DNA from: Chloroflexota bacterium
Lineage (GTDB): Bacteria > Chloroflexota > Dormibacteria > CF-121
Length of the DNA stretch: 34,958 nt
Direction: 5' to 3'
NCBI GenBank assembly: GCA_005882045.1
Contig: VBHO01000012.1
Span: forward strand, 386-35,343
The notes under the pieces are model-generated. The model ran no database searches. It was given only the letters and a program-made list of their open reading frames with translations, and was not told the DNA's origin. Made by a program: the position numbers and the translations under genes. Of the stretch, positions 33,655 to 34,314 are shown in pieces (position 1 is the stretch's first letter; each line of letters starts with the position of its first letter).

Positions 33655-34314
33655 GTGCCCACTTCCGTGCGCATCTACTCCGACTACGTCTGACCCTTCT
33701 GCTATATCGACTCGGTCGGGGTCGAACGCCTGGAGCGGGAATACGACGTCGAGATCGAATGGGTGCCCTTCGAGCTGCACCCCGAGATCCCGCCCGAAGG
33801 GCGGCCGCGCAACGAGGTCGTGCCGGCGGCGTACCTGGCCGGGGCCGAGGAGGGGGTGAATCGGCTGGCCGCTACCGTTGGCCTGGAGCTCAAACTGCAC
33901 GAGCGGCTGATCAACTCCCGTCCCGCCCTGCAGGCCGCGGAATTCGCGCGGGAGCAGGGGCGCTTCGATCCCATGCACCACGCACTGCTCCGCACTTACT
34001 GGGACGAGGGTAGGGACGTGTCCGATATCGCCGTCCTCCGCGAGGTCGCCTCGAAGGCTGGTGTCGACGTCCCGGAAATGGAGGCAGCAATCGCGGCTGA
34101 CCGATTCGGCGATTACCTCGACGCCCGGCGCGCCGAGGCCGAGGAGTTGGGCATCAACGGCATCCCAGCCCATGTCATCGCCGACCGCTACCTCGTGATG
34201 GGAGCCCAGCCGTATGACCTGTTTGAGCGCGTGATGGCCAAAGTCGGCGTGCCCAAACGGGCAGGCGATTCTTTTCCCTCCCCCCTTGCGGGGGAGGGTC
34301 AGGGTGGGGGGTGA
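33655..34314 (+). CDS. FrnE/DsbA-family thioredoxin-fold oxidoreductase with in-frame TGA (candidate selenocysteine, UPFC active site)
   Basis: GTG start, VPTSVRIYSDYV-[TGA 33691-33693]-PFCYIDSVGVERLEREYDVEIEWVPFELHPEIPPEG...INGIPAHVIADRYLVMGAQPYDLF; same frame before and after TGA. Confidence 0.75.
33691..33725 (+). promoter_or_regulatory. Candidate bacterial SECIS element
   Basis: UGA, 13 nt, then UCGACUC (33707-33713) / loop GGUCG (33714-33718) / GGGUCGA (33719-33725), 7-bp stem with one G-U pair. Confidence 0.62.

What the first reader, a model, noticed from the sequence alone, without database searches (positions are those of the whole stretch)
33655..34314. Candidate selenoprotein: FrnE/DsbA-family oxidoreductase with UGA at the first active-site cysteine (U-P-F-C)
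Seen directly: the frame reads ...RIYSDYV-TGA-PFCYID..., and continues in the same frame for 207 codons with FrnE-family landmarks including the cis-Pro loop (INGIPAHVI) and RYLVMGAQP. Established: FrnE/DsbA-fold enzymes carry CPxC here, so TGA sits exactly at the catalytic N-terminal Cys, the usual Sec/Cys exchange site. The rest of the ORF is intact, arguing against an old pseudogene. An automated ORF caller truncates the protein (supplied ORF starts at 33763), losing the active site.
Basis: partly seen in the sequence, partly recalled or inferred. Interest (0 to 1): 0.88.

Follow-up and report, generated by a model that had tools for sequence, protein, structure and literature searches.

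The report
Chloroflexota FrnE-type selenoprotein gene
The apparent stop codon in this gene is almost certainly read as the rare amino acid selenocysteine, making a selenium-using relative of the stress enzyme FrnE; the finding is real, but it is a further member of a selenoprotein family described in 2005.

Summary
Observation confirmed, interpretation supported. The window lies in a 3.2-Mb Chloroflexota MAG. The ORF 33655-34314 is an intact FrnE/DsbA (PF01323) gene with one internal TGA (33691-33693) at the first active-site cysteine, in the motif U-P-F-C. Forty-four distinct homologues across the phylum keep TGA at this codon; 16 others have TGC/TGT there. Selection is purifying downstream (dN/dS 0.08-0.16 within the genus). 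A 7-bp hairpin with a GGUCG loop starts 13 nt after the TGA and fits the published bacterial SECIS model. It shows compensatory changes and is conserved beyond what the protein requires in TGA genes, but not in Cys genes. The genome carries adjacent selA-selB and a selD that is itself a selenoprotein. tRNA-Sec is intact in nine congeners; here the contig stops 51 bp short of its expected place. AlphaFold plus Foldseek gives Deinococcus FrnE as nearest structure. Public predictions of close relatives are truncated past the active site. It is not novel as a kind: 'DsbA-like, COG2761, UxxC' has been listed since the Sargasso Sea survey. The new detail is a family-wide CIRCE operator between hrcA and this gene, suggesting heat-shock co-regulation, which was not tested.

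The parts
33655..34314 (+). Sec-frnE: FrnE/DsbA-family selenoprotein gene, 219 residues read through, GTG start to TGA stop
   Evidence: PF01323 117.5 bits; start codon (ATG or GTG) at the same place in all 13 family members examined; dN/dS 0.08-0.16 within the genus downstream of the TGA
33691..33693 (+). In-frame TGA read as selenocysteine (residue 13, first position of U-P-F-C)
   Evidence: TGA in 44 distinct homologues, TGC or TGT in 16 others at the same aligned codon; column C13 invariant in alignment A2 with U written as C
33700..33702 (+). TGC, resolving cysteine (residue 16), the only other redox-active thiol of the protein
   Evidence: invariant column C16; no other Cys codon in the ORF
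33707..33725 (+). Bacterial SECIS-type hairpin UCGACUC-GGUCG-GGGUCGA, 7-bp stem, 5-nt loop starting GG, loop 20 nt after the TGA
   Evidence: MFE -9.2 kcal/mol; 99.2% of cells paired, covariation score 0.398 against 0.162 in shuffles; 288 of 308 pairs in Sec genes against a synonymous-codon null of 227 (sd 5.7), no excess in Cys genes
33600..33626 (.). CIRCE operator (HrcA binding site), 2 mismatches to TTAGCACTC-N9-GAGTGCTAA, between hrcA and frnE
   Evidence: none expected by chance in the window; found in every family-f1 locus that includes the upstream region; the other two sites of the genome lie at groES and groEL
32561..33598 (-). hrcA, heat-shock repressor gene, divergent from frnE
   Evidence: 73-97% identical hrcA at the same place in the other family-f1 loci; naming as HrcA from sequence and the CIRCE site, no profile search run
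34273..34309 (+). G+C-rich inverted repeat that encodes the last residues of the protein (tail SFPSPLAGEGQGGG)
   Evidence: 76% identical copy at 29100-29136; most congeners end before this tail

Best explanation
This is a functional selenoprotein gene. The UGA at codon 13 is decoded as selenocysteine by the genome's SelA/SelB/SelD system with tRNA-Sec, directed by the hairpin just downstream. The product is a cytoplasmic FrnE-type thioredoxin-fold oxidoreductase with the active site Sec13-Pro-Phe-Cys16. Its likely action is thiol/disulfide exchange: the Sec13 selenolate at the start of the first helix attacks a substrate disulfide, and Cys16 resolves the mixed selenenylsulfide. It lacks the C-terminal CxxxxC of Deinococcus radiodurans FrnE, so the Sec-Cys pair must be reduced by an outside donor. 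Shown here: sequence, conservation, hairpin covariation, machinery genes and predicted fold. Inferred: actual Sec insertion, redox direction, substrates, cytoplasmic location (no leader peptide before the fold), and control by HrcA through the CIRCE site.
For: TGA is conserved at this codon in 44 distinct homologues down to about 34% identity, while Cys codons align there in 16 others. Selection is purifying: dN/dS 0.08-0.16 within the genus downstream; in codons 2-12 upstream there are 2-6 silent and 0-1 replacement differences per congener. The start codon is ATG or GTG at the same site in all 13 family members. SECIS: 7 bp, loop GGUCG, loop 20 nt after the UGA, -9.2 kcal/mol, meeting the published constraints; 14 cells with both-side changes and none of 500 shuffles reaching the covariation score; excess pairing over a synonymous-codon null only in Sec genes. 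Machinery in the same genome: selA C136:5961-7286, selB C136:7328-9187, selD C125 with HGAGUACKI. tRNA-Sec in nine congeners. Fold: pLDDT 94.4, nearest PDB 5co3/5xwh FrnE, TM 0.85-0.89. FrnE biology: PMC8945050.
Against: No intact tRNA-Sec gene is in this assembly; the contig that should carry it, C37, stops 51 bp short, and C28 holds only a 68-bp 3' part. The MAG is 91% complete. The full 55-nt fold is no stronger than shuffles (z -0.62), so the hairpin rests on covariation, not on energy alone. In a separate 40-nt fold a competing helix wins. A few distant TGA homologues (L129, L148, L153) do not pair in this register. No protein-level evidence exists.
Confidence: 0.96

Rival explanations
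1. The TGA is a true stop or the mark of a pseudogene; the downstream ORF is a remnant.
For: An ordinary ORF caller ends at the TGA and public predictions are truncated; nonsense codons are the commonest cause of in-frame TGA.
Against: The same TGA is kept across the phylum with low dN/dS and no further nonsense codon in the aligned region of the family. The TGA sits at the catalytic Cys codon and is followed by a covarying hairpin.
Confidence: 0.01
2. Translation starts after the TGA, at GTG 33763, making a shortened protein without the active site.
For: The ORF list gives this start.
Against: The codon is GTA or GTC in four of 13 family members (L004, L010, L013, L016), so it is not a conserved start. 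The upstream codons, including the start, are conserved as protein. The short form lacks the first strand, first helix and catalytic pair.
Confidence: 0.01
3. UGA is read by another route, for example as Trp or Cys by a recoded tRNA or by leaky near-cognate read-through, not as Sec.
For: tRNA-Sec was not seen intact in this assembly.
Against: The genome has selA, selB and a Sec-type selD. Cys is the homologous residue, so Trp would destroy the site. The ORF itself ends in TGA, so UGA still serves as a stop here.
Confidence: 0.02

Closest known systems
Prokaryotic selenoprotein family 'DsbA-like protein' (form 1), COG2761/PF01323, motif UxxC (Zhang and Gladyshev 2005, PMC1088965; Table 1 of PMC13188914)
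   Same: Same Pfam family, same Sec position in UxxC, bacterial SECIS downstream of the UGA. COG2761 is the FrnE orthologous group (own knowledge).
   Different: Here in a soil Chloroflexota lineage, with a CIRCE site and divergent hrcA in front; no paper found in the library describes FrnE by name as a selenoprotein in this phylum.
FrnE (DR_0659) of Deinococcus radiodurans, PDB 5cnw/5co3/5xwh
   Same: Fold (TM 0.85-0.89), cis-Pro loop, active site CP(W/F)C at the same place.
   Different: Cys instead of Sec; Deinococcus FrnE has an additional C-terminal CxxxxC that this protein lacks.
NF041057 Rcas_1661 family thioredoxin-like (seleno)lipoprotein (DsbG-like selenoprotein)
   Same: Thioredoxin-fold UxxC selenoprotein; partial profile match.
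   Different: Match of 45.8 bits against a cut-off of 190, C-terminal half only; no lipoprotein signal here.

Membership tests
Selenoprotein (bacterial) | In-frame UGA with Cys homologues aligned at it | tested here: met
Selenoprotein (bacterial) | SECIS hairpin downstream of the UGA: loop 3-9 nt, G in the first two loop positions, stem 4-16 bp, 16-37 nt spacing, MFE at most -7.5 kcal/mol | tested here: met
   constraints from PMC13188914
Selenoprotein (bacterial) | SelA, SelB and SelD in the same genome | tested here: met
Selenoprotein (bacterial) | tRNA-Sec in the same genome | tested here: inconclusive
   Not intact in the assembly; intact in nine congeners; contig break at the expected place
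Selenoprotein (bacterial) | Selenium present in the protein | not testable with these tools
   Needs 75Se labelling or mass spectrometry
DsbA-like UxxC selenoprotein family (COG2761/PF01323) | PF01323 domain over the curated cut-off with UxxC active site | tested here: met
FrnE subfamily of DsbA | Nearest solved structure and sequence is FrnE; CP(W/F)C-type site; cis-Pro | tested here: met
   P171 invariant
FrnE of Deinococcus radiodurans type | C-terminal CxxxxC used in regeneration | tested here: not met
   no Cys codon after residue 16; some FrnE homologues lack the motif
NF041057 Rcas_1661 (seleno)lipoprotein | Profile score over the cut-off of 190 bits | tested here: not met
   45.8 bits; no member over the cut-off in this genome
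HrcA/CIRCE heat-shock regulon | CIRCE inverted repeat in the promoter region | tested here: met
   which of the two divergent genes it controls was not tested

The most novel reading that the evidence does not exclude
In this Chloroflexota family the Sec-FrnE gene is a member of the HrcA/CIRCE heat-shock regulon, sharing its operator with hrcA, so that a selenium-dependent disulfide reductase is switched on together with GroES/GroEL as part of the protein-folding stress response.
Probability: 0.4. Interest if true: 0.4.

Novelty: new member of a known kind. Interest (0 to 1): 0.3.

Why it matters
It adds a clean, machinery-backed selenoprotein to the soil Chloroflexota and shows that standard gene callers cut the active site off it, so public entries list a stub without its catalytic pair. 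The CIRCE link, if real, would tie selenium use to the heat-shock response. As a class of protein it is already on the list of prokaryotic selenoproteins.

Tried and rejected
Rfam scan of the window: nothing at gathering score. Folding the 55 nt after the TGA as a whole gave no energy signal over shuffles, so the hairpin was tested by covariation and a synonymous-codon null instead. The best RF01852 hit of this genome (46.5 bits, C65) is tRNA-Ser by ARAGORN, not tRNA-Sec. The Lokiarchaeota homologues, the nearest outside the phylum, are all Cys forms, so they give no sign of transfer of the Sec form. The search for a second DsbG-like selenoprotein (NF041057) in this genome found only this gene.

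Full report
What was claimed.

The sequence. The frame runs from GTG 33655 to TGA 34312-34314 with one internal stop, TGA at 33691-33693. Read through, it is a PF01323 DSBA protein (E 8e-34). Its best solved relative is FrnE of Deinococcus radiodurans (E 3.9e-24), and in that alignment the FrnE cysteine stands at the TGA. The protein has no other cysteine than Cys16.

Where it comes from. The window is contig C235 of a 3.21-Mb, 91% complete genome in 269 contigs. The nearest named records are MAGs labelled Chloroflexi bacterium, isolates CF_136, CF_30 and others, from scaffolds named by depth in centimetres, so probably soil (the soil reading is inference).

Conservation of the TGA. In 61 genomes of the genus, family and class, the full-length homologues of the genus, of family f1 and of most of family f3 carry TGA at this codon. 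Across the phylum the pattern holds: 44 distinct sequences with TGA, down to about 34% identity, against 16 with TGC or TGT at the same codon. In genomes of named organisms the Chloroflexota forms are mostly TGA and the Lokiarchaeota, Marinomonas and most actinobacterial forms are Cys; one Isosphaeraceae and one actinobacterial MAG also have TGA. Within the genus the part after the TGA evolves at dN/dS 0.08-0.16, and in codons 2-12 before it there are 2-6 silent and 0-1 replacement differences per pair. The start codon is ATG or GTG at the same position in all 13 sequences examined, whereas the ORF caller's internal GTG is GTA or GTC in four of 13. The same TGA in separately binned MAGs argues strongly against a sequencing error.

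The recoding signal. Thirteen nucleotides after the TGA lies UCGACUC-GGUCG-GGGUCGA: a 7-bp stem, a 5-nt loop that begins with GG, 20 nt from the TGA to the loop, -9.2 kcal/mol. The published bacterial SECIS model asks for a 3-9 nt loop, G in its first two positions, a 4-16 bp stem, 16-37 nt spacing and at most -7.5 kcal/mol (PMC13188914); all are met. On 18 diverse sequences 99.2% of pair cells are standard pairs, 14 cells show changes on both sides, and no shuffle of 500 reached the covariation score; sliding the partners destroys it. Because the region is coding, I also drew synonymous codons at random for each protein sequence: TGA genes form 288 of 308 pairs against 227 (sd 5.7, maximum 245) expected, while Cys genes form 63 of 112 against 60.4 (sd 3.3). 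The sequences are related, so the standard deviations are too small, but the Cys genes serve as a control. In the genus, codons +5 to +10 show no silent change except GGG/GGA at +9, where both letters pair. Weak points: the 55-nt fold as a whole is not stronger than shuffles, and three distant TGA homologues do not pair in this register.

The machinery. The genome has selA and selB side by side on C136 and selD on C125, all over the curated cut-offs. SelD is itself of the selenocysteine type, HGAGUACKI. tRNA-Sec with anticodon TCA is found by ARAGORN in nine congeners. In this genome it is not intact: the neighbouring gene lies on C37, which ends 51 bp before the tRNA should start, and C28 holds a 68-bp piece nearly identical to the 3' two-thirds of the genus's tRNA-Sec. 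I take the absence as an assembly gap; this is inference.

Structure and mechanism. AlphaFold gives a confident thioredoxin/DsbA fold (pLDDT 94.4), with residue 13 just before the first helix (14-29). Foldseek's top PDB hits are FrnE of D. radiodurans (TM 0.85-0.89) and SCO1869. The natural reading is a cytoplasmic Sec-Cys disulfide oxidoreductase. D. radiodurans FrnE is described as a cytoplasmic disulfide reductase or isomerase chaperone tied to stress tolerance, and its C-terminal CxxxxC helps regeneration (PMC8945050); that motif is absent here, so an outside reductant is inferred.

Setting. The gene diverges from hrcA. A CIRCE operator with two mismatches sits at 33600-33626. In family f1 (the genus and two further genera) every locus that includes the upstream region has the same hrcA neighbour and CIRCE; within the genus the arms are unchanged while the 9-nt spacer varies. 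The other two CIRCE sites of the genome lie at groES and groEL. In the loci examined outside family f1 the gene is not next to hrcA. CIRCE is placed as expected to control hrcA; whether it also controls frnE, which starts 28 bp beyond it, is open.

Novelty. The Sargasso Sea survey of 2005 lists a 'DsbA-like protein', COG2761, motif UxxC, nine sequences (PMC1088965), and later lists keep it as a PF01323 UxxC family (PMC9312934, PMC13188914). This gene is a member of that family. New here are the phylum-wide spread in Chloroflexota with a covarying SECIS, and the CIRCE/hrcA arrangement. The listed protein predictions of close relatives are truncated.

Verdict.

Noticed in passing
window 33600-33626, with 32561-33598 (-) and 33655-34314 (+): CIRCE operator between divergent hrcA and Sec-frnE, kept in the whole family with variable spacer; the only other CIRCE sites found in the genome are at groES and groEL.
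   Followed up: partly
G000 C28:677-744 (L136) and end of C37 (L137): A 68-bp copy of the 3' two-thirds of tRNA-Sec (anticodon loop to CCA) without a 5' part, while the contig next to the expected tRNA-Sec breaks off. It looks like an attachment-site duplication by an integrating element at selC, or a remnant; no integrase was recognised on the 2.4-kb contig.
   Followed up: partly
window 34273-34309 and 29100-29136: A G+C-rich inverted repeat (TTTCCCTCCCC...GGGGGAGGGT...GTGGGG) supplies the last codons of two unrelated genes, giving tails PSPLAGEGQGGG and PTVSPSPSGGG; most frnE relatives lack it.
   Followed up: no
G014 C213:10354-11222: One congener has a second selD in two adjacent pieces, beside an intact TGA-containing selD on C161.
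   Followed up: no
L177 (Isosphaeraceae MAG) and L196 (Actinobacteria MAG): FrnE homologues with TGA at the same codon outside Chloroflexota, possibly transferred or independent Sec forms.
   Followed up: no
L129 (G057 C132): A FrnE paralogue-like sequence (EIWSDIVUPWCYIG) with TGA but without the hairpin in this register; either a different SECIS or a recent nonsense change.
   Followed up: no
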